Assembly: GCA_001692895.1 (NCBI GenBank)
Contig: KV748180.1
Span: 2,040,195-2,104,194, forward strand
Length of the DNA: 64,000 nt
Source: Cenococcum geophilum 1.58
Taxonomy: Eukaryota > Ascomycota > Dothideomycetes > Gloniales > Gloniaceae
Direction: 5' to 3'
The notes beneath the pieces are model-generated. The model saw only the letters and a list, made by a program, of their open reading frames with translations. It had not been told where the DNA came from and did not search any database. The translations under genes and the position numbers were made by a program. Position 1 is the first letter of the stretch; the number at the start of each line of letters is the position of its first letter. Below, piece after piece: positions 24,454 through 63,608 of the stretch.

Positions 24454-24830
24454 AATAAAAAAGAGAAGTATATATATATTTAGTATTAAGTTTAGGGTAT
24501 AAGGGCTATTTTAATTTTTATAATTTAGGGAGAAAATTTTTATTAAATATAGTCTTAAGTTCTAAAAATAATGGCTAGAGATATATATATGGGAATGCTA
24601 AAATTATCTTAAGGATTAGGCTTTTAATCTTTAGACGCCCTACTTATATGTTTTTTCTTAGCATTTATGTATATTAGCCAGCTTAGCTCTAGAATTGGAA
24701 AGCTAAATAAGAACTCTATAAGCGCTAGATATCCTCTAACCCTCTTTTTATCTACTTTTTATTAAATACTTTATTAAGAAATATTGTTTAGGATTATCTC
24801 TTAAAAAGCTCCTACCTTAAAACATCTAGA

Positions 24831-34543: not shown

Positions 34544-34596
34544 AAGAAGGTAAAGTAACTAGAGCCTAATAGTATACTAAAATATACTAAAAAGCA

Positions 34597-39330: not shown

Positions 39331-39870
39331 TAGATTAGTATAGATGCGTTATTACTTAAAGTTAGGGGCCCGGCTACTATAAGTTTCAGTCCTTTCCCTT
39401 TAGAGCCACCCCTTACTTTGCCTTTAGTATTACTTTACTACTACCCTTAATAATTTATTAGGAAATATAGTTATTATTATTAATAAAATATAGTTATTTA
39501 TTTAAGTTTTTGGTACTAACCTCTAAGTATAAAGTAATGTATTTCTCTATTGTAGTAGTAAATAAAGTAAAAAATAGTATATTAAATGTCTGTAAAGAAT
39601 ACCCTTAGCTCTATATTGCTAATCTATATCTTTATTATTAATGCTAAAAGCTATCTATAATTTAGATATAATTAATTTTAGAGGAAGATATAATTAAGGG
39701 GACTTATTAGTAAAAGGATTTAATAGGGCTGATTTCCGGACCCTATCTATAAGGTATTAGTTCCTTACATTTAAGAGCTATATAAGGTTGTCTTTAAGGA
39801 TAAATTTTATACTAAAAATATATTAAATGCTAAGCGTAAATACTAGCGGAATAATATTCCTAGAGCACTT
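39331..39870. other. RIP-degraded spacer
   Basis: No gene recognised between the Q/N-rich remnant and the 17-bp minisatellite. Confidence 0.35.
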
Positions 39871-39875
39871 TTTTT

Positions 39876-40088
39876 AGAGTATAGGTTATTCTAGAGTATA
39901 GGTTATTTTAAAGTATAGGTTATTTTAGAGCACGGGTTATTCTAGAACATGGGTTATTTTAGAGTATAGGTTATTCTAGAGTACGGGTTATTCTAGAGTA
40001 TAGGTTATTCTAGAGTATAGGTTATTTTAGAGTATAGGTTATTTTAAAGTACGGGTTATTTTAAAGCATAGGTTATTCTAGAGTATGG
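39876..40088. repeat. 17-bp minisatellite, about 12 copies
   Basis: The unit AGAGTATAGGTTATTCT is repeated head to tail about 12 times. Variants are TTTT for TTCT, GCACGGG or GTACGGG for GTATAGG, and AAAG for AGAG; most are transitions. Confidence 0.92.
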
Positions 40089-40175
40089 CTTTAAATCCCC
40101 TACGGGATTTTAATAAATAGGGGAAAATATTCCTTACGCTTAAATTTGCCGTGCTTTAGAGTAAGCCATACTCTA
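40079..40175. repeat. Inverted repeat closing the minisatellite
   Basis: TAGAGTATGGCTT (40,079-40,091) and its complement AAGCCATACTCTA (40,163-40,175) flank about 70 bases that themselves begin with AAATCCC-CTAC-GGGATTT, another hairpin. The left arm is the last minisatellite unit. Confidence 0.8.
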
Positions 40176-40647
40176 AAATATTTTTACTAAGGTTATTTAT
40201 AGCTTAGCCTAATTTATTACAAAAATAAATAGATATTTATTCTTAATATAATTTTATATAAATAAGATTTAATACACCCATTTTATAATAAATATGAATT
40301 TTAAAGATAGAAATAATATAGGTAAATTGCTATAGACATTTTTATAACTATTAGAGTTGTGTTTACTTTTGCGTAGTATCTTTTAGGGAACTAAAACGTC
40401 TTTTTAAGGAAACCTCCGCTATATAATAGCGAGAGTAAGTAACTAATTTAGGTATACTATGATTAGAAACACTAAAAGGAGTATTAAGTTGTTATTGCCG
40501 AATAAACTAGAATATACTTTACGGAAACCCACTAATTCTAATACGAATATCTTTGTCTACTTTAAGGTATATTATAATAGTTTTAGAAGGGTATCTTATA
40601 TAAAACACTACTGGTTTCCTAAACCTTAGGCATAAGGTATAAACACC
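40176..40647. other. RIP-degraded spacer downstream of the patatin gene
   Basis: Very AT-rich, no gene recognised. It holds the 3' flank of the minus-strand patatin-like gene. Confidence 0.35.
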
Positions 40648-43500: not shown

Positions 43501-43644
43501 AGAATTTATTACTTTATTTAGTAAGTACGCAAGAGTATTTAAATATAGCTAAGTTTAGGCGTTATACTCTTATAGGAATCTTTATATTAGCTTTATAATA
43601 GAATAGTTTTAATAATATTAGTATTTAAGGTAAAAAAAGCTATT

Positions 43645-43694
43645 TATAGAGAGAGAGAAGATATAAAGGCAACTAGGACCCTCTCTCTCTCTAT
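43645..43694. repeat. GA/CT hairpin upstream of the patatin gene
   Basis: TATAGAGAGAGAGAAG (43,645-43,660) pairs with CTCTCTCTCTCTATA (43,681-43,694), giving a stem of about 13 bp with a loop of about 24 bases. It lies between the divergent patatin and DUF3723 genes. Confidence 0.7.
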
Positions 43695-44049
43695 AGAAAC
43701 TATTTTATATAAAGAAAGGAAAAAAGGCGTTTTTTCTATTTCTAGATAGGATAGAAATAGCTGCGAGAAAGTGGCTAATAACAGTAGGATCCTTAGAAGG
43801 AGGTAACTTCTACTAAGCTCTTAGTAGATAGATATTATAGAGTAAAAGGATAGAAATAAGCTATAAATAGGATATAGATAGGCGTTAGGATCTCTTAATT
43901 TCTTATAGTCTTTTCTACTATTTTTAAACCACCTATTAGTTATTAGCAACCTAATATTTTACTANAGACCGGTAAACCCCTAGTNTANAGGTATATNTTA
44001 TTATANNTAGTATAATATAACGGATATAAAAAAATAAAAAAGCTATTTA
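43695..44049. other. Spacer with ambiguous bases between divergent cargo genes
   Basis: N occurs at 43,965, 43,985, 43,988, 43,997, 44,006 and 44,007. This is where the promoters of the minus-strand patatin gene and plus-strand DUF3723 gene would have been. Confidence 0.5.
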
Positions 44050-46540
44050 TATATTGTAATAAAAATAGAACAAACCTATTTTAACTAGAAAATGCTTTAA
44101 TATACCTAGAAAGGCTAAAGTTAAAGGTAATAGATTCTAAGTTAGAGCGCGACTTATCTCTCTTTAATAAGAAATAGAGTTACTTTTATAGGGATATAAA
44201 GATCCGCTTATTATTTCTAAAGTTTAAGGACTAGAAGGTTAAAGAAGCTCGGACCCTTAATTGGGAAAACGTTCTCCAACTTATTAACATCTTTAAGATA
44301 GAAGGCTGCTACCGCTTAGAGCTGGAACACTATATATTAGCTCTAATTAGTTAAGAGACCCTTAATAAAGGTCTATATAAGTCTAACTTAATATAGGTAG
44401 GTCTTTTAGACTGTTAAAGCGAGCCGCTAGAACTACTGCTTGATAATAACTCTATAGTAGTTTGCTTATATAGTTAACATTGTATTAAAGTAGGTAAAGC
44501 TTACCTTGTCTTAAGGGAAAAGTAGTAGGTTATAAGGTTGTATCTTAATAGTAAGTTAACCTAAGGTATAGAATAACGTAATCTAAAACCAATCTATAAA
44601 GGCCTTTTATTGAGTTATATCTTAGAACTTTGAATGGAATATTTAAATAAACGCCTATTTTGCGACGGCGATATATTTCGACACCTTTGATATTTCTAGC
44701 GTCGCGTAAATCTTATATAAGAAAATAAATAGCTTTTTAGGCTTTCTAAAAGCAAAAAAAAGGATATTAAAAAACTGCTTAAAAAAATGCCGTGTCTCCG
44801 CAATGTATTTAATAACCTTTTTCTACTTATTAGGCTTTGGCCGGCACTTTAGCTGGGCACTTTATATTATATCCTTATTTTAAAATGCGATGAGGTAATT
44901 ATAATAATTAAAGCCGGCTAAAATTTATAACTAACATTGTATAGGAGCTCATTTACTATCTTAACTATATTTATAGTTTATAGTTATATATACTTAACAA
45001 TAACAAAGCCCTTATACCTCTCTTAGATTCTTGTATAGTTTTTCTTATTAAGCTTTTTATTCCCCGAGGTTCATTATATAATAGATTAGAGATTGAAAAT
45101 CTTATAAAGGATAGTTAACTCTTCTTAGCCGTTATTTCTTATTAAGTATAAAGTGGAATCTTAGAGCGCCTAAAGAATTTCCTAGGACAAATTCCTTCTC
45201 TATATACATTTTTTAAGGATATAAAATATCTTAAACCGTGCTCTAAGGTGGTTAAAAGACTTCTACTAAATAAATTTAAAGGTATAGTATAGATAGCTAT
45301 AGGACGAGCCTATCTAGGATTAAATTAAGGCCAAATAAGTATATAAACAGTAGAAAGCGTTTACACTATAGAAGAAAGTAATTTAAAGGAATTAAACTTT
45401 AGGCTCGGCTACCTGTAAATTTAGCTTTTTGCTATACGACACTTTCCTTAACTTACTAGTATAATACCCCAGAAGGACCTCAGTAAGCCTAAACTAGAGG
45501 TTAAGCTATATAATATATTATAGGAATAGCTAGGATTCCTTATATAAAGACTAGGCTTTAGCTTTAATAAGATTACTTAGTTAATATATATAAATTATAT
45601 AGAGAATATAATAGAAGACTTCCTTAGTATAACTTACCTTGGAACTCTCTCTAAGCTTAAGCTAAGTCTTATACTTTAGCAAGTGTAGCGGATTTGTTAA
45701 ATAATTAGAGATATACTAAGTCGCTATCCTTATATAAGTTTCCCATTTCTTATAAATAACTCTATTTGTTAGCTAAAAATACACTAATATAGTCGACCGT
45801 TTAAACAATCCCATATTACTAATAGGAAATATTTATTTATTAAAAATATAAACAGTTAGCAGCCTATTTAGGTAAAGCAATATACCTTAATATTTTATAT
45901 TAAGCGAGATATATTCTATGCTTTTTTTAGGGTTTCCGATAAACCTTTAAAGCCGCTTATTTAAAGACTAAGCGGTAGGCCACTAGGTACTCTCTTAAAC
46001 CCTAACTTAGAGCCTCCCTTAAGCTCTAACTTAGGAGCCTTAGGCCCTAGCATAGGGAACCCCTTAGGTTGTGATATGAAGAATATAACGAACCCCAAGT
46101 TAGAAGCTAGTTAAAGGCCAACTACTAATATACCCTTAAGCGAGAACGACCTAATACCCTTACCCGATAACTCTACGTTCTTAGAAATGATTTAGGAAAA
46201 GCTAATTATTCTATATCTTTATACAAATCGCAGGCTTTATATATTCTTAGCGTTATCTTTAAGATTTAAATCCACTTTAGTGGATTTAGTGAATACTAGG
46301 CATAATTTTTTTATTGCCAATAGAGAGCGTTTTAAGTAGATAGGTGTGGGAGGTATAGGGGAGATAAAAAAAGGGTTGGTCTTTATGGGGGATACGAATA
46401 GGCTAGGGGGAAATACTTAGTCCTTAAATCCAATTCCCGATGAAACAGCCTATAAGATACGCCGAATCTCTTATTTTATTTAAAGTGGAGATAATATAAA
46501 TACTCTACTGCGTTAATGGCCTTTTAACTAGATCCCTAAA
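44050..46540 (+). pseudogene. DUF3723 family gene, RIP-inactivated
   Basis: One plus-strand frame opens with LKVIDSKLERDLSLFNKK. It then shows the DUF3723 order: ENVL*LINIFKIEGCYRLEL ahead of an HYILALI block (about 44,260-44,350), then VVCLYS*HCIKVGKAYLVL and EK**VIRLYLNSKL (44,460-44,560), matching the family's LHGRHRI...WWxVDLY region with RIP changes. Later come GTLAGHFILYPYFKM-type residues, IPSLYTFFKDIKYLKPC and VVKRLLLNKF (45,190-45,290), and a tail ending LGYL*I*LFAIRHFP (45,400-45,440). A Pro/Leu-rich repeat region and an extra C-terminal segment (FLALSLRFKSTLVDLVNTRH) follow. The molecular function of DUF3723 is unknown, but it is a recurrent Starship cargo family. The start is uncertain; N bases lie just upstream. 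Confidence 0.83.
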
Positions 46541-46699
46541 TAAATATATATATTTTTAGATATCTTATATATAGTGTTAAAAGAGCTGTTTTAAATTTAT
46601 ATAATATTCTAATATTTATTTTATTTTAAGAATTCTTTTTTTAGAAGAAGTATATATATACATTATAGTAAAGTATAATTTTTTAATAAAGAGAAAAAT
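46541..46699. promoter_or_regulatory. Short intergenic gap before the kinase-like gene
   Basis: About 160 bases of AT-rich sequence between the DUF3723 frame and the ATG at 46,700, so the two genes are co-oriented neighbours. No motif is legible. Confidence 0.3.
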
Positions 46700-48961
46700 G
46701 TCTTTATAAAGACGGGTTACTAAATTCCTAGCATATAAAAAAAACGCTGAAATGATTAAACCTACTGCGAATAAGGATTAGAATCGGCCTAATATACTTA
46801 TAAAATAAAAGTACATTTATAAGCGCAAGCGTATACCGTTCTATATTCTACTTAAAGTTAATAAAGATTTAGGGCTCTTCTTATTATTATTTACTACTAA
46901 TAGTAAAAAAACCGCTCTACTATTAAAGGAACTAGAGACCCTTATAGTCTTAGGAAGTCCATAGAACTACTACCGCAAATTGCTTAAAGAAGATTAGGCA
47001 GGACCTGTAGTTATTACCTTTAAAATAGAGCCAACTTTCCCTATTATAGTTATTAAAATAAGAGTAATAAGTAAGACAGTAAACGGTTTAGAATGCTCAA
47101 AGTTACCTCACCTTAATATTATCAATATTCTAGAAGTATTTAAAGAGGGCAAAATGGTATATCTAATATACGAGTGCCTGTCTGTATCGTTAGCAGATAT
47201 CTAGGCCAGCCCTTCTAAAACATTAGTAGAGTTTGAAATTGCTATAGTCTATAAGGAGGTAATATAGCTATTCTATTTAAAACCAGCCTCTAATTTTAAA
47301 TATAGGTAATCTAAGGACTTCTATTTATCTATAGCATTTATGTTATTTATGGCTTATTAAATTGCCAAAATCTCCTAATTTTAAGGAGTAGGGAAATTAA
47401 GATTAGTAAGTACCTAACGGTTATTCTAAAATAAAAAGCTAACGGTTAAGTAGTAAATATAGGTAAAAGTATACTTTAAGCGGCTTTTTATTCGGAGGAT
47501 ATTAATATAAAGGCTATTAGCTATATTATAATGCAATTAATAGAGCCCGGAACGGTTTTATAGTAACTAATTAGCCTTACTCTATAAAACCTAGAACGCT
47601 GGTCAGATATAGCTTAGGACTTCCTTAATGGAACCTCTTTACAGCCACTATTTTCTCTTAGTGAAGTATAGTTTCTAGGTTTTATCTCTTATTATGGGTT
47701 TAACGGTATAGTAGGACAAGTTTTTACTTAAATCACCGGGCCCGTCGTGCCTAATCCTATATATTTAGGTAGCTAAAAGGATAATAAGGCGGAAGTGGAA
47801 GATATTTCCGGCCTTATTCTAACTTTAGATACAGCGCTAAATTAGTTAGTTATAGTATAACGCATATAGACGCTAGAATTAGTTAAGATATAACTTAGCA
47901 TACCTAAAATGTTATAGGGGGTATTAGAGCGGCTAATGCATAAGATATATAAGTTTTCACTCTTCCCACTTTTTAATAACTAAGCCCTATTATTAATAGC
48001 TATACATTAATTAAGAACTTTTATAATCCTTCCACTAGTTATATTGCATATTACTATATAAGCTAGCGTCCAATCTTAATAAATCTACTTAACTAACTAG
48101 CCGCTATAGCTACATCCTATAAAGCAAGGTAGAAAAGTTAGAAAAGTCTCTAAACCTCTTTATAATACGATATAAGCCGTATAACGGTACCTAAAGAGGG
48201 GTGCTAGGGCTACTTCAGCTGATTATTTTATAAAGTGGCAATATACATATAAGGCGCGGCTAGAAGCATTTGCGCAGCAATAAAAGACATTAGTAAAGAC
48301 TTTAGAAGACCTTGGAAAATAGGTTTAACAACTTAGAGCTAAGTAATAGCAAAGTGGGTATGTCTATTCTAATTGTTATAAGGCAATTAATAAAGAATAG
48401 GAGGAGTTAGAAAATTTCGCGTGTTAACTACAGGATATTAAAACTAGCGTTAGCGATTTGGATTATAATATGTTAATTCTTAATTTTAATTATAAAACAT
48501 TTAAGTGGATAGCTAGGCGATGTAATTATAGGATAGAGGTGGTAATAAAGAAGGTCCTTAAGATTAAGGAGAGACTAAATAATATAGATGAATAGGTTAA
48601 CTAGTCATTGGGTGCTTTAATGGAATAGAGTATAGTTAGTAGGAATATAATCTCTAAAGCAAAATAATAAACTTAATTAAAGATGCGTTAAATAGCTAAA
48701 AGTACAACTTATAGAAACACGCCTCGGGTTTAATCTAGATAAAGCCGTAGCTCGTCTTTTACTTAGCTAGCAGCTTACTTATTTACGCTAAATGCTTACC
48801 TAGCTTACCCTAGGCGCTTACCCTAGGCGCTTATTTAGCTTACCCTAGGCGCTTATTTAGCTTACCCTAAGCGCTTACCTAGCTTATACTAGACACCTTA
48901 AGTCGCCTGGTAGCCTTTATAATAGCCTATACCCTAGTCCTTTTTTTGCTATATAGCTTAG
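46700..48961 (+). pseudogene. Kinase-like (possibly pseudokinase) gene, RIP-inactivated
   Basis: A single frame of 754 codons starts at ATG 46,700 with only RIP-type stops. After about 90 residues it shows a kinase N-lobe: GPVVITFKIEPTFPIIVIKI (VxIK lysine, about 47,005-47,060), then LPHLNIINILEVFKEGKMVY and LIYECLSVSLADI (hinge). The C-lobe reads GLLNCQNLLILRSREIKISK, where a usual kinase has H-R-D...N...D-F-G; the HRD Asp and DFG are not visible, so this may have been a pseudokinase before RIP. DINIKAISYIIM*LIEPG and DFLNGTSLQPLF complete the C-lobe. About 350 further codons are helical, ending in 22-bp repeats. The substrate is unknown. Confidence 0.75.
48796..48897. repeat. 22-bp tandem repeat, about 4-5 copies, at the kinase-like gene's 3' end
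   Basis: TTACCCTAGGCGCTTATTTAGC is perfect at 48,818-48,839 and 48,840-48,861, with diverged copies at 48,862 and 48,884 and a partial one before 48,818. The period is not a multiple of three, so the repeat cycles through frames. Confidence 0.88.
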
Positions 48962-49169
48962 GAACTTTTAAAAGTTCTATATAAGAAATAACTTCACTAA
49001 GATCTATATACTTCCCTACCTTGCCTACAATGTCTTATTGTCGGCAACTCTCTATATTAGAGACGTTGATACTAAACCTACTTAAAGAACACATCTGTAA
49101 ATATTAGTACTGCACACCTATACTTAAAAAGAGGTGCTTTATTAGCTAGCAACTAATTTATAATACTGT
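48962..49169. other. Spacer
   Basis: No gene recognised between the kinase-like gene and the next plus-strand remnant. Confidence 0.3.
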
Positions 49170-50732
49170 TAATATAGTATATAAGGGATTGGACGGTTAA
49201 ATATATAGTAATGTAAAAGAGGACAATATGCTAGTGTGGGTAGAGTTACCGCCAAAGTATTTTATTGTTTGTAGAGTACTTTAGTTAAATACTTTAGCTA
49301 GGAATTAGATAGCGCTAAGAGATATAACTCTACTAAAGGCCTGCGACTAAATAGAGCTAAGTTATTAAGATATAGCATTAGTTGGTTAAAAAAAGGTGTA
49401 TTTTGTTTTATAGATACTAGGGTATAACTACAAACGGTTGCTACTGTATTGCCTCTTCAATATTAGACATATTAGGCCCCTTAGCATCCTTAGTCTTCTT
49501 TACCTTCTCCGTCAACTAAGCATAATAGTGGACTTATAAACTTACCTAGGTTTGATCTAGGAATTCCTTTACAATATCCTTTTACCGGACGTTATTGCTC
49601 CTTAATAGAATTAGCTTGTTGTTATCCTTTTTTATAAATGCTTATCTTGTTTATTAGGGTAAACCTAATAATTAAGAAGATGCGGGCGAACGGGAACCCA
49701 ATAATGCGCGTGAATAGGAAATTGGTTTTTGGGATAATACGGGTCGAGGGCTTCCGTGTAATAAGGTTGGATGGTTTTTTATAGGTAAGAGGTACTGGTC
49801 GTATATTCAATTCCTAACGGTAATAGTTCCAGCCTAAGTTAAACATCCTTATATAATTATTAGCTCTACTAAAAAGCGAGGAGATAGAGTGTTAGGTAAT
49901 AAATAAAGCTTAGCATTTATTAGGTATTATAAAGTCGTCTCCTTAGAATAGATTAAAGGGTTAAGCTCGGCGAACTTCTTTAACTATAGTTCTCGCTTTA
50001 TTTTAGGAGGATTGTTATTATTAAATCCAACTATAGTCCCCGGGCTACTGCATTCTAGTAAATTAAGACTATCGGTCTTACTATTGGGATTAAAGGCGGG
50101 ATAATTAAGACTTTCGCTCCGTATATTCGTAAGGGCCTTTATAAAGTTATTAATATACAGTTTATAGGTTAGGGTGGGGATTAGGGTCCTTAGGCCTAAC
50201 CTATAGCATTAAATATATAATTGGGGCTTATAGTCCTAGACTCTAATATAGAATGCATTCTAGTAAATAAAAGATATATACTATAAGGGGGTAATGCTTA
50301 AAAACTGCTAGCGAAAGCAGAAGCTTTATATCTTATAATCTGGGGTAATAGTTTGGAATCGCCTTTTTAGGGCTCGCTAATGCAGATAGACTTACTAGAT
50401 GCTATATACAGCCTCTAGCCACTAATACTTATACTTTAGAGATAAGCATATTAGTGGCGACGTTTATTATTTAAGTAAAATATTATAGAGGTAAAGGCGC
50501 TATATACTGGGTTCAAATTCAATTTTATATACTGTAGTCTATTATATAGTTTAAGTGTCCCTTAGACTTAGCGCTCTAGCTCACAAATCTACTATTAAGT
50601 TAATATTTATATAGTGTGCGCTAGTGGCGGATAGGTAGCGACTAGAGTCTTATAGATGCTTCTAGCTCTATATATTAGGTCGCCTATATACCTAAAAGTT
50701 GGCAATATATAAATAAAGGATGCCGTGTCCGT
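49170..50732 (+). pseudogene. Large unrecognised remnant, possibly a membrane protein
   Basis: A plus-strand frame can be followed for several hundred codons with RIP-type stops: CIASSILDILGPLASLVFFT (about 49,450-49,510) and LLLLNRISLLLSFFINAYLV (about 49,590-49,650) look like membrane segments. Then come NNAREQEIGFWDNTGRG-type sequence (49,690-49,750), FFIGKRYWSYIQFLTVIVPA, FAPYIRKGLYKVINIQFIG (about 50,110-50,165) and RVL*MLLALYIRSPIYLKVG to about 50,705. The 49,622-49,810 part is open on both strands and unusually little mutated. No family is recognised, and the unity of the gene is inferred. Confidence 0.4.
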
Positions 50733-50985
50733 AGTGGTAAGCGGAGCTCTCTAGTGTAACCGCTATAGGATTAACTCGCCTACCGCCTACTTTATTATCA
50801 TATAATTAGACTTAATAGTGGCGGGCAGGGCTCTCTAGAGATCGCTATATAACCAACGCGCCTACTACCCACTTTATTGTCGTATAGTTAGGCCTAGTAG
50901 TATTAAGCGGAGCTCTTTAGTATAATCACTGTATTACTAATACGTCTGCCACCTACTTAATTATTGTCACCTAATTAAGCCTGCT
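50733..50985. repeat. 83-bp satellite, 3 units, inverted relative to 36,876-37,300
   Basis: Units begin near 50,741, 50,824 and 50,907 with GCGGAGCTCTYTAG and contain CGCCTACCGCCTACTTTATTRTC. The complement (GTAGGCGGTAGGCG, GGGGCTCCGCTC) is the core of the repeat near 37 kb. Confidence 0.8.
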
Positions 50986-52819
50986 GCCTTGAGATTCTTT
51001 AAGGACTTACTCTGCTATTAGAGAGACTCTATTGCACTAAAACTTAGCTATCTTATAGCTTATTAGCTCGTAAACTAGTTTAGATTCTAGCCTTAATACA
51101 CTAGCTATTAACCCCACTCGCCTTAATATAATAAGATATAGGATCTGCCGTAACCTAGGAGAAAATTCTTATCTTAGCGCCTTATAGCACTATTATAGCG
51201 ATTTAGCCAACGGCCTTAGGCATAAGATGGCTTTAAGGGGTTGCTTAAACTTTGCTATTTTATTTTATAGTCTATAGTAAAAACGGGTTATCCGTACTTA
51301 CTCCCTAACACTCCCTATACTATATAGTAGTACTACTATTAAGAGGTCTAGATTATATAATTACCATGCCTATAGGGAGACTTTGCTTAGGCTTTATCCT
51401 TACAGCTTATAATACGTTAAGTAGCTCCGCTCGCTAATATAGGCGTATAATTTAAGACGCTAAAGTAATTAGAAGATAATGCTGTCCGATTTAAAAGTTA
51501 AATCGCGCTACTAACCTAGGTTTTTCGCTGCATGACCATCTTAAGTAGGGAAAGCGCTGGCGTAACGGTGGTGTGTAAAGCTAAACGCTAGAGTTACTCA
51601 CCGTAATGAGGATCCTGTAAGTTAATCCTTATAGATTATTAAACGGCGGCTTAATTAGCCGTGGTGGCCCAAAATATAATTACCTAATCCTGTTAGTTAT
51701 AAAGGACTAACTTGCTAATATATACTAAGCTAAAAGATATAAGGCAATTTATATCGCTAGTTAGGGCTCTATCTTACCTAACGTAGAGGATTTTAGTAAA
51801 GCCCTTTAAGCATTACACGTTACTATAAGGAAGGAATGTTTAAGCTTACCATAGTTAAAGGCGTAGTAATATCTTTTATGTTATTAGCAGCAGTATTTAA
51901 ATTAAAATAAAGGGGTGTAGTTTATACGTAGTTTTACTATTAAAGGATATCTAGAACTATAGAAGGAATAGAAAAGGACTAGCGGTATAGGTAGTATAGA
52001 CGGTATAAAACTGCGGGAGAGGAATAGTAGTTAAAACTAGAAATAAAACGGCGATAGAAACTATGCTTTTATAGGCGACGTTAACGTATAGGCCTTTAAA
52101 AGCGGCGGTGTTCGCCTATAAATTTATAGTTCTTATTTACTTAGGGGCAAATACTTGAAAAAATATTACTTTTAACCTAGGGTTTTAATAACTAGTAGTC
52201 CTAACACAATATAATTTCTGTTAAGAAGGGCTTAATAAATTGCTATATCCCCAATTTATATAGGGCCACGTTTTGTTTACTTATGGAAAAATGAAGCTTA
52301 TAAAAGGTACTAAGTATTTCTAGAGTAGGCCTATACCTATATAAGGAAACTAGATTCTAAAAGCCATTTTGAAAAGCCTTCCTTCTACATTTTCTGCCTA
52401 ATGTTCTTAAATATCACGCCGTACTTAACCCGTTTAAATTTAAGCTACGCAAGACTATACGGTAATCTCGATAACTAGCCAGGCTTTTGCTATAGTTTTT
52501 GCTAATATCTTTACTATGTTTCTTTGCGATTACCTAAAAGAAATTATCTATTAGCCACATTTATTGGGCATCTTTTTTAGGTCTTATAGTATTTTATACA
52601 CTAAGCTTTTACTATATATTGGAGATTAGTATACTTATAGTAAACTTGGATATAATCGCACATCTAGTGGCGTATAAATGAGTAGGAATAATATATTAAC
52701 TACGGAACAGTTCGCTTGCCCTATACTGTTTTACATACGTTTTAACTAAGGCTACTACCTAGCCTTCGCCGCCTAAATCTCTGTAAAACTTTACTTATGT
52801 ATAGAAGAGCATAAGATAA
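50986..52819. other. RIP-degraded stretch with coding-like traces
   Basis: A plus-strand segment at about 51,930-52,120 reads YLEL*KE*KRTSGIGSIDGI then FKSGGVRL, possibly part of a gene. At 51,540-51,640 the sequence is less mutated. Nothing is identifiable. Confidence 0.35.
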
Positions 52820-54960
52820 TAAAATATTATTCTATCTACTCTACTAGTACCTTTAGATCCTTCCTTACTTCCTAAAGCACCTCCTTTATTTAAGAAGGAA
52901 GTTTTTTATCCTTTTCCTTTTGCCTCCTACCGCCTAAAAATACTACCTTCCGTAATCTGTTGACCTAAGGGATTAGTGGCTAATAGTACGGTGAAAAGTT
53001 ATCGTCTGCACTTTTAAGAAAATCCCCTTTATTATCCACTTCTCCTTTCTTTATCTTAGCTAGCTCTTCCGTATTTATAGAATTCCACTTATTAAACCTA
53101 TTAACAACGTTGCCTTTCTTATTAGGTCTATTATAGTAAATGTATATCCAGAATAGCACCTAAAAGAACGACTTAAGATTATGCCAAGCTAAGTATATCT
53201 TGCCTAGGAGCACTCTAATCGCCATAAACGCTCTTATACCGGTCTTGCCCCGCGCTCCTAAAGGCCCTTCTTACTACTCCTTAATTGCAAGATTAAAGTC
53301 GATTAAGAATGCCGGCTAAGAAGGATTATTGTCTTCCTTATTTATTATAAGGTTGCCTATTAAAATATTATATTAGATAATGCCGGCCCGCGTATATAAA
53401 GACTTATATCCTTTAATACTACCCTTTAGTATAGTAAGCATTGTAGCCTAAGAGCTTGCCTTGTAAAGAGGCTTTCCGTAGTCCCTAGTAATAATATATT
53501 AATATACTCAATTTAAGGTTATAGGGTACCTTTCGCCTTTAGGTAGAGAGCCTAAATATATGCGCTTGCTAGGCGGTAATGGGGTATTAGTATAGCTAGA
53601 CGACCTCTTTCTGCTAGAACTTTAGCCTTTTTTGATTTTTACTCTAGCCGGTTTTAGAGGCATTATTAAGTTTTCTGGCTTATAGTTTATCGCTCTTGTA
53701 ATATCTAGCCCCTTACGGACGTTATTGTAAATATTATCTTCTTTACCGCCTATATAAACTGTCTTGTAGTGATAGTACCTGGCTACGTTAACTACTTCTT
53801 TCTCCATTACCTTATATAGCAGTTTACCTTCTTCCTTACATTATAGGTACTGCTATAAGTCTTTAATAACAAGGGGTATCTTAGAGGTATCCCCCTTACG
53901 GTATACTTTCTAGCAAGTAGTTACTTAACTGGCGATACAGCGTGCCCACTTTATAGATTTGTTAAGGATGAGATACTTAGTCTAATTATTGCGTACGACC
54001 TTAATATATTGTTTACTGTCTAATGTTAAAATAGTAGGGTTAAACCTAAGCTGCTCCTTATTTATTTAGAGAAATCCTAATATTACTAAGGTAAATTATA
54101 GTCCGTCTTTATTAATATTAAATAGTAATAATATAATGCCTCCTACCCGGTTATACTCCTATAGCCGTATAATAGATTTATAGAGGGTAAAGCCTAAGAT
54201 AAAGCGACGAGTGTCTTAAGCGGTAAAGACTTCTCTTATATATTTCCCTAAATTAAACCATACCTATAAGGGTATATTAGAGTTTAGATTACTCTTTAGC
54301 TCTTTTAGTATAAGTATATATAACTAATAGTATTAAGAGCTTTTGCTAGCTATTGGATTATCTATAAAACTAATATCTAGTTTTCGCTTTGCTATAGACC
54401 CTTATAAGGGCTGCTTAGTATATGTGATAAGCGTTTATTATATCTTTGGGGCGGACCCGTGCTCCTCTATAAAGCCTAAAATTAATTTAATTAGGCTACT
54501 AAACCACTCTAGGATATTATCTTGCTCTATACTTTTAGGCCAGTTACGCCAGCCGCCCTTGGCGTATAGTAGATTATTCCCTTCCTTACATTTCTTAAAA
54601 ACAGCAGCGCTTACCTCTTTAAGACCTTTTACTCCTTTAAAGAATGCTTTATAAAAGCCAGGAATCCCTATATAAAAAGGGCCTAGCTCCTCCTTTAGAA
54701 TATAATCTACGTATTCCCTACATTTAGACGAGTTAGTAAAGCTGCTTATATTGCGTAAATATGGGGTTTATTAAATATGGAGTGGTAGCAGTTAGGGGGG
54801 AGGCGTAGACTCTATTATAGTGGTAATAGTATTACTCTAAACGTCCTTATCTAATTCGCGATTAATAACTGTTTTTAGGAGAGGGGTAAACTATTTAATA
54901 TTAAAGTCGTTAGAATTAACTAAAGGGAGGAGTTAAAAAAGGTTACTATGAAGAGTGCCG
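52820..54960 (-). pseudogene. FunK1-type fungal protein kinase, RIP-inactivated
   Basis: The minus strand carries the FunK1 order almost end to end. N-terminal: NSNDFNIK*FTPLLKTVINR and EELGPFYIGIPGFYKAFFKG, then YAKGGWRNWPKS (about 54,530-54,560). Middle: KLDISFIDNP, RRFILGFTLYKSIIRL*EY, GLQFTLVILGFL and the 61-codon open segment VVNVARYYHYKTVYIGGKED (53,622-53,807). C-terminal: RVILRDYGKPLYKAS, an I*YNILIGNLIINKEDNNPS catalytic-loop region (about 53,330-53,390), FLIDFNLAIKE in the DFG position and GKTGIRAFMAIRVLLG, then LKSFF*VLFWIYIYY. FunK1 kinases are fungus-specific and often expanded; substrates are unknown. Stops are RIP type. The plus-strand 103-codon frame at 54,343-54,654 is a shadow. 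Confidence 0.92.
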
Positions 54961-55763
54961 CGGCCAGCGCTAGACGGGAGTAGTTAAGCAGTGAGAAGGT
55001 TTTATAATGCCAGGATAAGGTCGACTATAAGATTTTTAAGCCCTATATATGTTAGAAAGAACCTATAACAGATAAATTAATAATTACCTTTATTGCCTAT
55101 CTAGCGTAACAAGTCTAGAGAGCTAGGGATGCCTAGATCCTAATAAGTTAAGTTAAATAAATTAAGAAAGCTATTTAGTCCTTCCCTAATAGGGTTTATT
55201 TTAATTATCTCTAATTTAAAGAGATTTGCCATTGCAAGCGAACGCGCTAAAAGCTACGTTGGGAGGGCGGGTAGGCAGGCGGGGAGGGAAGGTTAAAGAG
55301 GCTAGTATATAAGGACGGTATAATAGCAAATAAATATAGGGAGGTTAAGAATATATCGGGCGCGTCTTATAATAAGGAAATAACTAGGGAGAAAAGTATA
55401 AGGAAGAAAGCAAGATGCGAGTAAATATAAGGATTAAAGATTGGGCGTAAAAAAGTTAAGCTAACCTAACGTGGCTTAGATTAAGGCTTTGTAAGGCTTA
55501 GTTAAAATACTAAGCTATAATATAAGGAGGCAGCGTTTTCTAGTCTATAATTATTGGTTTTAGTTTATTTTATAACGCGTGAGGCTTATATAGCGAGGCT
55601 AAAGAGGAGCCCTTATCTCTTACCCTACCTATTACCCCTTTTAGACAAATTACAAAATCCTAGTTATTATGTCTATTCTATTAAATACTATAATAGGATT
55701 AAATAATAATAGACTAAAGTAAAATAAAAAGTGGTAAAGAATAATAAGATAAGCGCGTAATAA
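54961..55763. other. Spacer between FunK1 and the captain
   Basis: Would hold the FunK1 promoter and the 3' flank of the captain. A lightly mutated G-rich run (GGGAGGGCGGGTAGGCAGG, 55,260-55,280) is present. No gene recognised. Confidence 0.4.
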
Positions 55764-56737
55764 CTAGGAAAAGGTCCTATATACACTAAGCGCATAGTTT
55801 TAAAAATGCATTTTATACTTAAGGGTCACTTCGCAAACGTTATATCTAATCTTACCCTACTATAGGAGTTTGGAGAGATAACTGCCTTAGAAATGTTTTA
55901 TAACAGCAGCTGGAGTATAGAACTTATATATATGCTTACTAATTGCGAGCTTTTTATTCCCGAGGCAGATAAAGCATATTTTTAGTCTTTTCTCCTTATA
56001 TAAGGATAACCTTGCCCTTTTTAGCGCTTTAGCCGCTTCTAAAATCTCAGTATCTTCTTTAATCTTAACTTGGCCAAGGGCGACATCTATTCTAGACTGT
56101 CTCTGGCAATGACTTGGCCGGTACGCTCTGCCCTCCTTAATATTACAGTAATCTACGACCGCATTAATGGCATTATTGTATCTACGTATTTTATCTTCTA
56201 GTGATATACTAGGTAGCGTTATAATTACTTTAATAAGGCGTTTGTATTCGACCAATCTATTATTACTAGATTTTAAGGTTACTTTAATATCCTCGCTAAA
56301 TATAACCCCGGAAAGTTGCCGCTTAATATCAATTATAGCTTATTCGTTATCCTAATTCTTCTTAATATTTTTTAATAGCGCATTTCTCTAACGTTGCCTT
56401 TTATTTATGATTTCTCGGCTAAGCTTTTAGTATTCTGTACTTTCTATAGTTTTGCGCTTAAGGCTAAGCTTTAGCTTATTTTAAACTTTAATTAAGGAAC
56501 AAATACGCAGGTTCTCGTTTACCGATAAGGATTATTCTATTATTAGGTGCTGTGGCCGCCACAGGTCAATTGATTAGCTTATTTAGTATACTACTTTTAT
56601 TAACTTTTCTTAAGGCTCTAAGCCTTAAATGATTACCTATATATCTACACCAATACGCCGCGGAAGGTAGTGCTTTAGGAATGTTTAAGTGTTGGTATGC
56701 TATATTATCAGGTTTTGGAGGGCGTTACTTACATTAC

Positions 56738-56797
56738 CTAGGTAGTATAGGCGTTAGAAAGGTTTTAGTAGAACTAGCTCTATATAATAAAACTTAC
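56738..56797 (-). other. Captain intron, 60 bp
   Basis: Minus-strand GTAAGT donor at 56,797, CTAAC branch-like site (56,750-56,760) and CTAG acceptor at 56,738. Removing it joins FNKN and NVSNAL exactly where the DUF3435 family is continuous. Confidence 0.8.
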
Positions 56798-57174
56798 TAT
56801 TTTTGTTAAATGCCTTACCTGCGCCGTAATGGAGACTATATAGGCGCGCAACTTGCTAAAATCCCGTAATTGCGCCAAGGTCCTTAATCTAGGGCAAAAG
56901 AGTTAAGTATAGTAAAGGCTCGTTGAGTAAGACCTTATGGCCGTAGGGGGTTTTAATTAATTGCTAAAATATAGGGATATTATCTAGGTTTAAACGGAGT
57001 AGTAGCGGTAACTTGTTACGCCTAGGCTTAATATATAGCTTACTAAGCTACTCTATAGACGTTAGATTAGGAGGTGCAAAAGCTTAGTCAGTAAAGAGAA
57101 GGCCTAGGAAAAAGACGTAAGGGCTAAGAATAAGTAAAGGGTTGAAGATAATCTCAGGAATTGGGAAAGTATTA

Positions 57175-57226
57175 CTAGTTCTCTATAAGCATAAGGTAAG
57201 AGGAATAAGGTAGAAAGAGAATATAC
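57175..57226 (-). other. Captain intron, 52 bp
   Basis: Minus-strand GTATAT donor at 57,226 and CTAG acceptor at 57,175. Splicing restores frame from SIKEA to NTFPIPEIIF, matching the family. Confidence 0.7.
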
Positions 57227-58249
57227 GCTTCTTTTATACTAAGATATTCCTTAGTGAATTTAAATATAAACTTAAGCATGATCTTGTAAGGCCCGCCTTT
57301 TAGGTCGCGAATAAATATAACTATTATATATTAGTAGCATAGATTAAGAAGAGCTTTAGGTTGGCTTATAGTGCAAAAGCCTAGCTATAGTAAGAAATGG
57401 ACTTGTATCCGATGTCGCCTAACTATATATCTTTTTCTTGTTATAACTAAGTTGGTCTTAAGAACTAGGGCGAGATCCTCTGCGTTTATAATAGGCTTTT
57501 CTCGCTTCTTATTACTTAAGCCATGTTTCTTTACTAGTTTCCGAAGTACCTAGAAAAGATATTTTAGCTCCGCCTTACTTTACTAGGCTAAAGGGTTAAC
57601 TAGGAATGTAATTACCTTATATATCTAGCGGGTTAATTTACTAGCAATTTTCCTATTAGTTACTCTCTTATATATAAGGCGATAGTACTTCTAGTATATA
57701 CTAAGCGAGCTAGAAAGCTTTATCCCGTACTATTTCCTACTCCCCTTCCCTTATTTCTAATTTAGGAGCCAGTTAAAAAAGCTATAAAGTAGCCGAAGCG
57801 AGAGGACTTAGTACATTTTCTTAGGGTCTTTCCTTATATAGGTGTAGTATCTAGAAATAGTTAGCTCTAGGTTAAGCCTAAGAGAAAGCCGCAGAATAGG
57901 TTATTACTTACTAATACTATTAATCTTTAATGCGGTCAAGGAGATTCGTACTACTATTAGCGTAGTCCTACGTCGTAAAATTAGATTCCTTAAACTCTTC
58001 TAACTATTTAAGGTAGTATTTTAGTAGATAATCTTAATCCTTATAAAGCTATACTTAAGCGGGCGCTTCGTAAGCATTGTTAGATTTAGCGATACTATTA
58101 GCGTTATAGTTAATGCCACTATCGGCATCGCAGTCGGCGTTACTATCGGCATTACTGTCGGTATTACTGTTAAAGACGGTTAGTTCTGTCCTGTAGCTGT
58201 TACCGTCGCTATCTATATCTATATACTTATTATCGGTGACGCTAGACAA

Positions 58250-58586
58250 TAAGCTATAATCTAATAATTAAGCGCGCCGTATTCTAGGGAGCTAGAAGAG
58301 AACTTAGGGTAATGGCGGCGGGAGGGACCTAGAGGGTAATAACGGCGGGAAGGATCTAAAGAGCAATATGGGGTTAAGGAGATGGGGGGGTAGAGAATAA
58401 GAGAAACGGGGCCTAGATTAAACGGATTAGAGGTAGGAGCTATAGAGTTATATAGCTTTAGCGCCAGGCGCGTGGAAGATTATAGTCTACCTATTAAAAA
58501 GCAAGGGCATAGGGCGGTAAGCGAGAGGCTTAACGTTAGACCGGCAAGCAGGAGGCTTAGGGCGGCGGGGAGTTTTAGCGACGTAA
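58250..58586 (-). promoter_or_regulatory. Captain upstream region and candidate 5' terminus of the Starship
   Basis: This GC-richer, lightly mutated stretch separates the captain start from gypsy sequence. It holds two 27-bp direct repeats (58,307 and 58,334; GGGTAATRRCGGCGGGARGG) and GAGGCTTA repeats (58,523 and 58,552). Short repeats are usual near Starship ends. On the minus strand 58,575-58,586 reads TTACGTCGCTAA, which fits the published TTAC(N7)A target/terminus pattern, a weak match of five fixed bases. Confidence 0.5.
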
Positions 58587-59050
58587 CTTCTAAAAACGGC
58601 GACAGAACCCTCCAAAACCGGCAGTTAGATCTCCATTTTCTTTTTTAAAAGAGGAAAACTTATAAAAGGGATATATTAGACTATTATAGTTATTAGCGGG
58701 TTATCTAGTACTATTTATACTAAAGAAGAATAGTAAACTTAGGCTATATATTAACTATAGATAGTTAAACAGCATTACTTAGAAGGATAGGTATCCTTTA
58801 CCCTTAATTAGCAAAATCTAAAATAGGATAGGTAATATATAAATCTTTATAAAGATAGATCTAAGATAGGCATACCATTAGATTAGAATTAAGGAAGGCA
58901 ATAAATAGAAGGCAGCCTTTAGGTTAAAGGAAGGACTATATAAACCATTAGTTATGCAATTTAGGCTTATAAATACACTAGTAACATTCTAAAAGCGTAT
59001 TAACAATATATTAAAAGAACACTTAGATAAATTTGTTATAGTATACCTTA
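58587..59050 (+). mobile_element. Truncated Ty3/gypsy reverse-transcriptase fragment
   Basis: The plus-strand frame reads FLKEENL*KGYIRL, LFILKKNSKLRLYINYR*LN, KDRYPLPLISKI, IFIKIDLR*AYH*IRIKEG, K*KAAFRLKEGLYKPLVM*F and KRINNILKEHLDKFVIVYL, the classic gypsy RT order from subdomain 1 to just before the catalytic YxDD, where it stops abruptly at about 59,045. It has no visible gag, integrase or LTR. The left end abuts the captain region, so the Starship probably inserted into, or beside, this element. The right end is cut by the next gypsy element. Stops and D-to-N changes are RIP type. Confidence 0.88.
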
Positions 59051-62000
59051 GCGTCTTAGAAGGAATATATAGGAAGCTAGTTCCCCTCTAGAGAAGAACT
59101 AGCAATTAGTCTCTAAATAGAAGTGGTTAGAAGTATTTATCCTTTAATATATAAAAACTTATTCTACCTTCTACTTACCTTTAATATACCTTTAACTTAC
59201 CTTCTACTTACTAGTAATACTATTAATTAGATAATTATACGTTCTAGTTAAGCTAGCTTCTTATAATTCTAATTACTTATAATCCGTTAGGAACGTATAG
59301 CTATTAATTAACAATAACGGACTATACTCCTATACCCTATAAAGCAACGCCCTTACCGCAAGAGGCTTAGAGAGTCTCCTTAGAGGAGCGCATTCCCTCT
59401 ACTTATAAAAGAGTAGACTAAGAAGCCACGGCTAGTCCGTCTAACTTTGCAAGACCTTTAGGAATAATTACCGCGGGGGAATTATTAGAGAGGTCGCTAT
59501 ATAAGACCCTATAAAAAACAAAGGAGTTAGAGATACAATTAAGATAAGTATATTAAAACTACTAAGAATAATTGTAAGGACAATTAGGGGAAGTATAGAC
59601 ACCCTAAACACAAAGCGGACTTAAAGGGGTAACGCTATACTACGCTGTGACGTTAAAAAAACCTAAATTTCGCATAAAGGAACTTAATAAGTACTATAGT
59701 GATAGTCTCCGGAACTATAATTGTTTTATCCGTTAATGCAAAACTAAGTTTTAGCTAGATTTAAAACGTTACTCTAATAAGTATAATTAGATATTAATTG
59801 CTTCTACCTTTCTACGTGGCACCGTTAAGAGTTTATAGATACGCTACGAGAAGAAACTTACTACACCCTTTAAATTTAGCGAACTTAGGACCTGGTTAGT
59901 TAATCAGGTCTAAGACCCTACTAATTAAGGGATAGACTATAACTAGCGATACCACAACGCCAAATAGCGGGATGGTTAGACTATAGTCCAGTTTATAAAC
60001 TACTTAGAAGAACTAAAAGACAATATACCCTACTTAAATCTATAGGATAACGCTATATAACTTTACTAGCTACTTATTAAGCTATAACCTAAGATTTAAT
60101 AGGCTATATAAGAGAAGGGCAAAATTCCTACCTTTTAAGAAAAGCTTATCTCTAAAGCTACTTGGATTAAGAATACTAAAAGAGACTATCTAGGTAAGCG
60201 AAAGGAATAAGACGCTGACGATAAAGAGCGTAGGACTAGATCTAGCTTTAATAATAGAGGCAGATTCTAACCTAACTACTCTACAGAAGGATAACGTAAG
60301 TAGGCCTTACAGCCCTAGAGCAACGCTAATTAACTCTAAAATAATAATAGGTAGAGACTCAATCCGCAGAAGGGGAACTAGAAGACACGTACCTATTATA
60401 ACTGTAGTAAGAAGGGCTATATAAGCCGCTTTTGCTAATAAAAGAAGTAAGAGTTAGCCTAATTAGGAAAAGAGACAGCCTAGTAAATCTTTACTCCCTT
60501 ATACTAGGCTAGCAAGAAAAGGAGGGAGTAGACTACCGTATGGTTATTCCTGTCTCTATTTAAGTTAATAATAAATAGGTAACGTAAGACTGCCTTATAG
60601 ACAGCGGCGCGAGTATAGGGTTTATTTTTTAATTACTAGTAAAAGAATTAGATTTGGACCTTAGTGGCTTATAGGTGCGCACTATTTAAAGTATTAGAGG
60701 CTACTAGATTCCGTGCTATAGGGAATAAACGTTTTCTATTACTAGCTAGGACTATAACGGTCTATAGAACACGTAGGAAATACGCTTCTGCGCCGCAGAA
60801 ATTAAAGGGTATAACCTTATTTTAGGATACCTATAGCTTCGCCAAGTTAACCCAGATATTAATTGGCCTTTAGCCTCGTATTAACACCAAAAGTCTTAAT
60901 CACGCATTATAATTAAGGATTAAGAGACTTTCCTAAGCCATATATAAGAAGAAGGGTGGGCATATACTATATATGCCACTCTTAACCCCAAGAATAAAGA
61001 TATAGGGTAGTTATTTTCGGATATCCGGCTATATACAGTTAAGGAACTAGAGATTCTATAGAAATATACGGACCTAGAAGAGGTTTCTAATAAAGAGGCT
61101 ATATAAACCTTACTTAACCCTATATTAGTTAAGCATAAGATAGATATAGGGGACAAGCAACCTTCTTTTAGACTACTATATAACTTGTTAGAAAATAAGC
61201 TAGCTATATTACGTTAGTATATAGTAGATAATCTTTAGAAAGGATAGATTTGGCCCTCTATAAGCCTAGCAGGGGCACCAATTATATTTGTACTAAAGAA
61301 GGACGGGACCCTTTGCCTCTGTGTTAACTATTAGGCGCTTAATAGGATTACTATAAAGAATTGCTACCTACTACCCTTAATAGGGGAGCTTATTAACAGG
61401 CTGTTAGGCGCAAAGATATTTATAAAACTAGATTTAAAAGATATATACCATCGAATCCGGATTAAAGCCGGCGATAAGTAGAAAACAGCGTTCCAAATAC
61501 AGTACGGCCACTTTAAGGACCTAGTAATGCTATTTAGGCTCACTAACGCACCGGTAATATTTTAGGCCTATATTAATAAGGCATTATTAGGCCTATTAGA
61601 TATAATATATATAGTCTACCTTAACAATATTATAGTCTACTTTAATAATTACAAAGTATATACGTACTATATATAAATAGTACTAGAAAGACTACGGGAA
61701 TATAAGCTCTATATAAACCTAAAAAAAATGCTCTTTCTATATTACTAGTATTAATTTTCTAGGCTTTATTATTAGCGTTAATGGAGTGTTAATAAAGAAA
61801 AGCTAGGTAGACACTATTAGGGAATAGCTATACCCTATAACGTTTAGGGAAGTATAGGTTTTTTTAGGCACAGCAAACTTCTACTAAAGGTTTATTGTTT
61901 ACTATTTATAAGTAATACTCCTAATTACCAATCTACTAAAAGGATCTAAGAATAGTAAGAAGTTAGGACCCTTTATATTTAGAGAAGCTACTAAGTAGGT

Positions 62001-63608
62001 AATAGACCGGTTAAAGGATTTATTTACGTCGGCGCCTATTCTAATACACTTCTGCTAGGAGCTATATATATACCTTAAAACGGATACATCCGGCTTTACC
62101 CTAGAGGTAATTATATCTTAATTAAAAGACGGAGAATGGCATCCTATGGCGTTTTAGTTAAGGAAAATAACCCCTATAGAGCAGCGTTATATAACGCACG
62201 ACTAGGAGCTGCTTATAATAATTACAGTAATAAAGTACTAGTAATATTATTATATAGGAAGCAATTATCCTATTAAAGTCCTTATAGACTATAATAACCT
62301 AGAATACTTTATAACTATAAAGATATTAAGCGGTTAATAGGCGAAATAGGCAGAGGCACTATTATAGTACGACTTTAAAATTACGTACCGCCTAGGAAAG
62401 ATAAATCCTGCTAATGGGTTATTAAGACGTCTAGATTATAAAATAGGGAGGATCTAGGACAGCATAGGGGAAATAATCCCTATATTACAAAATTTGCTTA
62501 GGAAGAAAGAAGACTCTTTCCCTAAAACTATAGAATTTTATAGTAGGGTAGAGGTCCTAGTAATACAGCTATAAAGCAATATAATTATGGAGCCGTAGGA
62601 TATAGTTATAGACTAGGTTATAGACTAAGCAGACATTATAAAGTTAGCGTACCCTAGAATTAGCGAGAATTCTGTGGGATATACTAGAGGTATCGCGGCA
62701 CCTTTAACTTAACAGCGTATTAGCTATAAGTTTTCGGATCTAAGGGGGATAGGTAAGATACCTATCCGCAGCGTGGCACACTATATAATAGTAGGAGAAT
62801 CTACTAGCACTAATAGTTCGAAACGTCTTATGCCACGCCTTAAGTCTATAATAGCGGCAGGCGAAATAGAAGTAAGTAATCTATATAAAACTTTTCTAGA
62901 TTTTCTTTTTTAAGCTTAATAAAGGGACGCCTTTGCCTCTAGGGAGAGGTAGAAAGATATAGTAGAGACTAACTTAGCTAGAGTTACTAAGAAGCTATAG
63001 CAGCAAGACTAAAAGGGTCTATTACGCTTTAAGGGTGTATATATATCCTAAAGGACCAAGTAATTTAAGATAAAATTTTAAAGGTCTTCTATAATAACCC
63101 TTTTAGGGGTTACTATAGTGCTAATAGAACCCTTAAGGCCGTTTAAAGGAAATACTTTTAAAATAGAATATCTAAAGAGGTTAAGGACTATATATTAAGG
63201 TATAATACGTGCTAAAGAATATAGATATTTAGGTATTACCTATACAGCAAGTTATTAATACTTCCTATTCCGTAGGGACCTATATTAGAATTAACAATAG
63301 ATTTTATTATAGGCTTACCCCCTACTAAAATAAGAACTAGAGAGGTTGCTAATACTATCCTAGTAATTATTAATAGGTATATAAAGTTTTTAGGATACTT
63401 TACTATTATAATAACGATTATAGTAGTAGAACTAGCAGACCTATTTTTAAAACAGTAGCTCTTATTTAGCATACTAAGGGGAATTATATCTAACAGAGGT
63501 ACTATATTTAATAGTACATTTTAATCTTTATTCTATTTTTTATTAATAATATAGTAAAGAATAAGCACTGCCTTTTACCTATAAACAGACGGGCTAATAG
63601 AGCGTCTA
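59051..63608 (+). mobile_element. Ty3/gypsy retrotransposon (gag-PR-RT-RH-IN), RIP-dead, 3' truncated
   Basis: In order on the plus strand: a probable LTR/leader (59,051-59,380) with repeated CCTTCTACTTACC; gag (about 59,400-60,440; ARPLGIITAGELLERSLYKT and ASTFLRGTVKSL) ending in a CCHC knuckle whose first Cys and His are now Tyr (60,391-60,435); aspartic protease DSGAS (60,597-60,612); RT with FVLKKDGTLCLCVNY, KNCYLLPLIGELI, IFIKLDLKDIYHRIRIKAGD and VYLNN where YLDD belongs (61,617-61,628); RNase H (KTDTSGFTLEVI near 62,080; YITHD near 62,195); integrase Zn region (YNTC, about 63,205), LTIDFIIGLPP (63,290-63,325), VIINRYIKF and the TDGLIER end (63,590). Minus-strand open frames here are shadows. 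The integrase is cut at 63,609 by another insertion. Confidence 0.93.

What the first reader, a model, noticed from the sequence alone, without database searches (positions are those of the whole stretch)
55764..58249. DUF3435 captain shows this window to be part of a fossil Starship
Seen: an inward-facing gene whose N-terminal, catalytic and C2H2 blocks follow the DUF3435 family in order. Known: DUF3435 tyrosine recombinases mobilise Starships and sit first at the 5' end. Inference: the DNA to the left is cargo of a giant element, not a random AT-rich block.
Basis: partly seen in the sequence, partly recalled or inferred. Interest (0 to 1): 0.95.

Follow-up and report, generated by a model that had tools for sequence, protein, structure and literature searches.

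The report
RIP-killed Starship giant transposon family
Most of this stretch of fungal DNA is a 64-thousand-base jumping element of the known Starship kind, copied to several places in the same genome and then mutated to death, most likely by the fungus's own genome defence.

Summary
Observation and interpretation both hold. A broken, minus-strand DUF3435 gene lies at window 55767-58243; PF11917 matches it at E=4e-72 without de-RIPping. The window lies in a 177-Mb genome, fungal by its genes. Comparing paralogous copies fixes the element's ends: it starts at window 58652 and ends about 5,002 bases left of the window, about 63.7 kb. The DUF3435 gene is first and faces inward. One copy is colinear over 63.2 kb (with one insertion), another over 48 kb, at about 91% identity; against the latter, 4,023 differences are transitions and 20 transversions, CpA-biased, so near-identical copies were RIPped. 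Two empty sites show clean insertion into older repeats at a TTAC-like core; short imperfect inverted repeats link the ends. I collected 51 captain-type 5' ends; 16 pair with a 3' end within 110 kb, against 0.8 by chance. Copies carry at least two cargo types. This is a multicopy, RIP-inactivated Starship lineage: a new member of a known kind. Little cargo is recognisable; captain family and host species were not settled.

The parts
1..58652 (-). Starship-type element (reads right to left); it continues to window coordinate about -5002 (C5:2035192), about 63.7 kb in all
   Evidence: Colinear with the C45 copy to -4820 and with the C9 copy to 10478; 3' end shared by other copies; junctions located.
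58653..58658 (-). 5' junction core TTTTCC, target side of the duplicated core (the 3' junction core ends at about -5002 and reads TTTTAC)
   Evidence: Empty-site copies L051, L052, L053; coordinates.
58630..58647 (-). 5' terminal inverted repeat, 18 bp imperfect (14 of 18 in this copy, 16 of 18 in the C31 copy)
   Evidence: In this copy 42 of 500 shuffles score as high; in the five other copies tested 2 to 13 of 500.
55767..58243 (-). captain: DUF3435 tyrosine recombinase gene, pseudogene, with C-terminal C2H2-like blocks
   Evidence: PF11917 E=4e-72 and 1.7e-12; tblastn with P0001, P0003, P0004.
52893..54836 (-). cargo: remnant of a FunK1-type fungal protein kinase gene, in a unit (about 52715-55522) found in full at 17 and in part at 4 further places among 33 scored
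   Evidence: PF17667 E=6.1e-17 for 53451-53909 and 1.5e-9 for the intact ORF 53622-53840. The piece 54336-54836 had no Pfam hit and is assigned by eye (recalled); repeat unit.
17327..17881 (-). cargo: protein kinase remnant
   Evidence: PF00069 E=4.8e-11.
13508..13864 (-). cargo: protein kinase remnant
   Evidence: PF00069 E=8.7e-5, below Pfam's cut-off for the whole protein.
41879..42265 (-). cargo: possible patatin-like phospholipase remnant
   Evidence: No Pfam hit; patatin chain only at E=0.063; motif assigned by eye (recalled). Weak.
58659..59048 (.). right flank: part of the older repeat into which the element inserted (its other half lies left of window coordinate -5002)
   Evidence: Continuous with the left flank in L051 and L052 over about 400 bp on this side, in L053 over 108 bp.
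59049..63608 (.). outside the element: another high-copy repeat, about 4.56 kb
   Evidence: 23 of 30 other rows cover query 393 to 4952 or 4953 (only the best candidates were scored).

Best explanation
Window 1-58652 is most of a 63.7-kb Starship-type giant transposon. Shown by sequence: a DUF3435 recombinase gene is first at the 5' end; the same unit sits at other loci; its ends meet unrelated flanks; the insertion left a short TTAC-like core on both sides in an older repeat, without loss of target sequence. Inferred: the DUF3435 protein, when intact, paired the element's end core with TTTAC/TTTTCC-like genomic sites and moved the whole unit with its cargo. Copies that were still almost identical were then hit by repeat-induced point mutation, which filled captain and cargo with stops and changed likely catalytic residues. 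This copy is now a fossil.
For: PF11917; gene position. Colinearity and transition-only, CpA-biased divergence: own vs C45 5,168 transitions and 59 transversions in 63,158 bases, own vs C9 4,023 and 20 in 48,056; 66-69% of CpA sites differ against 5-19% of other C sites, sites with a differing neighbour left out. TTAC just before the shared sequence in 19 of 23 5' ends read; own TTCC, one ATAC, two TAAC. TTAC at 7 of 7 3' ends read. Two empty sites. 18-bp imperfect inverted repeats. 16 5'-3' pairs against a random mean of 0.79, maximum 4 in 2,000 trials. Weak: the top Foldseek hit of a homologue's poor model is the Cre-derived Tre recombinase, E=8.1e-3.
Against: The structure model is poor (pLDDT 53.6) and a PDB sequence search with a homologue found no recombinase. 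Catalytic motifs were read by eye against recalled integrase motifs; the presumed box I arginine is present in only 6 of the 10 homologues. One paired copy (C52) has its two ends in two different repeats, so at least one 'element' is rearranged or misassembled. The own copy's inverted repeat alone is not significant (42 of 500 shuffles). No second strain was available, so movement between strains was not seen.
Confidence: 0.94

Rival explanations
1. The gene is a solo DUF3435 gene or a short Crypton-like element of about 3 kb, and the DNA to its left is unrelated AT-rich repeat filling.
For: 29 of 39 other scored places share only the stretch up to query 3282-3291, about 3.05 kb, with this one, as a short element would. 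Solo DUF3435 genes are reported as more usual than captains (PMC12134995, passages).
Against: 16 of 16 such copies read past the break carry on into other shared sequence, 13 of one sort and 3 of another, not into unrelated flanks with an end core. The first sort was found at 40 scored places, 27 of them within 2.5 kb of a listed captain match. Two copies are colinear with this one far to the left. 3' ends with the same terminus lie 28-95 kb downstream of 16 captains.
Confidence: 0.03
2. A large segmental duplication or ectopic recombination, not transposition, made the 64-kb copies.
For: The C52 copy has ends in two different repeats, which recombination between copies would give.
Against: Duplications do not stop at the same base in many copies, do not leave a TTAC core on both sides and do not leave clean empty sites.
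Confidence: 0.03

Closest known systems
Starship superfamily, e.g. Hephaestus-family elements with target TTAC(N7)A and the Phoenix-family Janus with A(N3)TTACTA(N2)A(N15)CT (PMC12153272, passages read)
   Same: DUF3435 captain at the 5' end, cargo of tens of kb, short direct repeats with a TTAC-like core, short inverted repeats, empty sites
   Different: High copy number within one genome and heavy RIP; in A. fumigatus a Starship present in a strain is, with few exceptions, single copy (same paper). The target here reads roughly TTTAC-T(A/G)(A/G)(A/G)T in the seven 3' junctions and the empty sites and fits neither published motif exactly. Captain family not placed.
RIP-degraded Starship of Gaeumannomyces tritici type A (PMC11905480 and PMC12134995, passages read)
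   Same: Gene-poor Starship with extensive RIP
   Different: A single element per strain there; here many copies and at least two cargo types in one genome
Horizon of Pyrenophora tritici-repentis (PMC9594970, passages read)
   Same: DUF3435 captain and target site duplications. A P. tritici-repentis DUF3435 protein is 40% identical to this captain over the part searched; whether it is Horizon's captain was not tested
   Different: Horizon is 143 kb and carries other cargo; that genome is under 2% RIP-affected
Cryptons (recalled)
   Same: Tyrosine recombinase element
   Different: Short and without large cargo

Membership tests
Starship superfamily | DUF3435 (PF11917) recombinase as first gene at the 5' end, facing inward | tested here: met
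   PF11917 hit; the gene starts 0.4 kb inside the shared 5' boundary.
Starship superfamily | Giant unit with cargo that moves as one block | tested here: met
   63,158 aligned bases with the C45 copy, 48,056 with C9; 16 end pairs 28-95 kb apart (pairs made by position, most not aligned through).
Starship superfamily | Short direct repeats from the target, empty site | tested here: met
   Own insertion and the C5:283487-353277 insertion. Third one tried, C52, failed: its flanks belong to two repeats.
Starship superfamily | Terminal inverted repeats | tested here: met
   18 bp imperfect; 2 to 13 of 500 shuffles as good in 5 copies, 42 of 500 in the own copy.
Starship superfamily | Captain shows a tyrosine recombinase catalytic signature | tested here: inconclusive
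   Among 10 homologues the presumed catalytic H and Y are invariant, the box II R is in 9 and the box I R in 6 (motif naming recalled). This copy is a pseudogene with stops and both presumed arginines altered, taken as decay. Fold support weak.
Starship superfamily | Placement in a captain family by phylogeny | not tested
   No reference captain set at hand; captains are said not to be monophyletic (PMC12134995).
Starship superfamily | Presence/absence between strains or horizontal transfer | not testable with these tools
   The tool says the genome has no relatives here.
Crypton or solo DUF3435 element | Short element without large cargo | tested here: not met

The most novel reading that the evidence does not exclude
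One captain lineage multiplied inside a single genome like an ordinary high-copy transposon: at least 51 captain ends and at least two cargo types (one of about 64 kb, one of about 34 kb), targeting TTAC-like sites inside older repeats, each type spreading as near-identical copies (shown for three copies of the long type only) before RIP silenced them. Cargo exchange beneath a shared captain and shared ends would then have happened within one genome.
Probability: 0.55. Interest if true: 0.65.

Novelty: new member of a known kind. Interest (0 to 1): 0.55.

Why it matters
Reports of Starships that I read describe one or a few copies per genome, though one paper says some species accumulate more (PMC12153272). 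Here one lineage is present in dozens of places with readable ends, empty sites and a nearly pure transition clock, so copy number, target choice, cargo exchange and the timing of RIP against transposition can be measured in one assembly. It also shows that an AT-rich block can be a dead giant element rather than anonymous repeat.

Tried and rejected
Structure: a model of the homologue P0001 from a 10-sequence alignment was poor (pLDDT 53.6, pTM 0.30); Foldseek gave one plausible hit, Tre recombinase, E=8.1e-3, used only as weak support. A PDB sequence search with P0001 found no recombinase.

Cargo: of 20 low-stop pieces given to Pfam (chosen by eye from the 89 stretches and the ORFs), 3 gave hits that I credit (FunK1, and two kinases of which one is below Pfam's cut-off). 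Hits to Nse5, Cas9_C_2, Pox_F16 and a third kinase at E 0.035-0.09 were set aside as chance. Of 7 ORFs, 5 had no hit. Rfam gave nothing at its gathering thresholds, and no tRNA was found with the bacterial code.

Short-element rival: rejected. A first transition/transversion count mixed in spurious low-identity blocks; one search replaces it.

Host species: a PIK1-like gene in the left flank is 97% identical to an unnamed protein of one source and 85% to Mytilinidion resinicola, so probably a Dothideomycete near Mytilinidion. Papers: searches (listings); passages read in six papers; PMC13004909, PMC9156397 and PMC10104507 are not held.

Full report
Observation. The window is G000:C5:2040195-2104194 of a 177.2-Mb, 162-contig genome. 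All 16 of its 4-kb blocks have a strong RIP signature (composite index 1.03-1.44). PF11917 hits an untouched 150-aa ORF at 1.2e-6 and the unrepaired frames at 4e-72 and 1.7e-12. The domain holds 18 in-frame stops. In an alignment of 10 homologues the presumed catalytic histidine and tyrosine are invariant, the presumed box II arginine is in 9 and the presumed box I arginine in 6. In this copy the histidine and tyrosine are kept and both arginines are changed. The naming of these motifs is recalled, not tested. Two C2H2-like blocks follow, partly broken.

Element boundaries. A DNA search of the own genome with the captain region scored 40 places. All 39 others begin at query 224-248, 25 of them at 243-245 (window 58656-58658). 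Read at base level, 23 5' ends have different flanks and then the same sequence, preceded by TTAC in 19 of 23 (own TTCC, one ATAC, two TAAC). The left side was followed into 20 kb beyond the window. The C45 copy is colinear from window 58658 to -4820, with one 6.4-kb insertion that has TG..CA ends and a CTTAT duplication, like an LTR retrotransposon. The C9 copy is colinear to window 10478 and then breaks off. C45 itself stops short of the 3' end. Seven 3' ends read at base level share ...TTTTTTAC and then differ in their flanks within a few bases. The own element runs from window 58652 to about -5002, about 63.7 kb.

Insertion mechanism. The own flanks are one continuous repeat in copies on C98, C20 and C14...TTTTCC|TAGATAAAC... 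in C20 and C14, TTTTCT in C98 (the C14 copy matches only 108 bp of the right-hand side, the others about 400). At the own 5' junction TTTTCC meets the element, and at the 3' junction the element's TTTTAC meets TAAATAAAT, the target's sequence with two RIP-type changes. So nothing was lost and the core stands on both sides, once in the target's and once in the element's spelling, as expected of strand exchange by a tyrosine recombinase (mechanism inferred). A second empty site was found for the copy at C5:283487-353277: its joined flanks match from query 3 or less to 769 or more of 773 at 24 of 40 scored places, and the three that I read have TTTAC at the join. The same test failed for C52: its 5' flank and its 3' flank match two different sets of repeats, with a TTTAC-like site that continues differently in each. 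That copy is therefore a product of recombination between elements, or a misassembly. An 18-bp imperfect inverted repeat links the ends; it beats shuffles in C5b (the C5:283487 copy), C52, C31 and C6 (2-7 of 500 as good), less so in C19 (13 of 500) and not convincingly in the own copy (42 of 500).

Timing. Between own and C9, 4,023 of 4,043 substitutions in 48,056 aligned bases are transitions; between own and C45, 5,168 of 5,227 in 63,158; between C9 and C45, 4,092 of 4,132 in 47,348. Of C sites before A, 66-69% differ; before C, G or T only 5-19% (sites whose neighbour differs were set aside). The copies were thus nearly identical when RIP struck, so transposition and RIP were close in time, or the copies have gathered little other mutation.

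A family in one genome. together give 51 distinct 5' ends (each search scored only 40 places, so this is a lower bound). I listed 25 3' ends: the 24 of 40 rows that reach query 93 or beyond of about 101, and C15; the 16 rows that stop at 68-70 were dropped. Sixteen of the 51 pair with a 3' end on the same contig and strand within 110 kb; random placement of the 20 3' ends on contigs of known length gave 0.79 on average and at most 4 in 2,000 trials. Pair lengths run from 28.3 to 95.4 kb and sum to about 0.91 Mb (my sum of the rows). Pairing is by position; long colinearity was aligned only for C45 and C9, which are not among the pairs. Lengths recur at 33.8-34.0 kb (three) and 63.7 kb (two). 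The long type shares cargo with this window: C5:283487 and C52 over the first 12.6 kb and last 4.9 kb, C6, C31 and C15 with interruptions. Of 39 other places, 29 break off at query 3282-3291. All 16 of these read past the break carry on into different shared sequence, 13 of one sort and 3 of another. The first sort was found at 40 scored places, 27 within 2.5 kb of a captain match that I had listed. So one captain lineage carries at least two cargo types. Whether cargo was exchanged within this genome or the types arrived separately was not tested.

Cargo. Only remnants are recognisable: a FunK1 kinase (PF17667), two further kinase fragments, one below Pfam's cut-off, and a doubtful patatin-like piece. 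The other 16 of the 20 pieces tested gave no hit that I credit.

Comparison with what is known. The papers I read in passages describe Starships by a DUF3435 captain at the 5' end, cargo, direct repeats (19 of 20 in one set) and inverted repeats (18 of 20) (PMC12134995, PMC11905480, PMC12153272). These features are met here; captain family and movement between strains were not tested. Some captain families are said to prefer other transposable elements or 5S rDNA as targets (PMC12134995); both empty sites here lie in repeats. RIP-degraded Starships and species with multiple copies are already in print (PMC11905480, PMC12153272). In the listings of five searches of the library I saw no paper announcing this element or dozens of copies of one captain lineage in one genome, but I read only passages of six, and many papers are not held.

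Verdict. What is unusual is the copy number and the completeness of the record.

Noticed in passing
window 34591-35415, both strands: A 275-aa frame is open on both strands: K/E/D/N-rich on plus, F/S/L-rich on minus. The stretch is purine-rich on one strand (GC skew 0.58 at 35001-36000), so it may simply offer RIP few targets.
   Followed up: no
window 52715-55522 and places such as C67:375241-378070, C97:164466-167290: The FunK1-bearing unit recurs elsewhere, and on C67, C97, C22, C8, C45, C58 and C44 a match to the element's 3' subterminal segment lies about 10-28 kb away on the same strand. Another element family may share cargo and end with this one; C67 also has a DUF3435 match at 358877-359842.
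   Followed up: no
L031 and L054 (C52:652811-716542): The two ends of this 63.7-kb copy sit in two different repeats, which suggests recombination between giant copies or a misassembly.
   Followed up: partly
C45:118470-124840 (in L021): A nested 6.4-kb insertion with TG..CA ends and a 5-bp CTTAT duplication, like an LTR retrotransposon, lies inside the C45 copy.
   Followed up: partly
C49:752543-753905 (L001, L005): One DUF3435 gene of the genome has a single stop in its two listed PF11917 stretches, so another captain lineage may be less decayed.
   Followed up: no
window 39835-40142: A tandem array with a 17-bp step, about 18 units long.
   Followed up: no
left flank, window about -11000 to -20000 (L030): GC rises to 45-52% and the RIP signature disappears; a PIK1-like kinase gene lies here, so the AT-rich block borders gene-bearing DNA.
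   Followed up: partly
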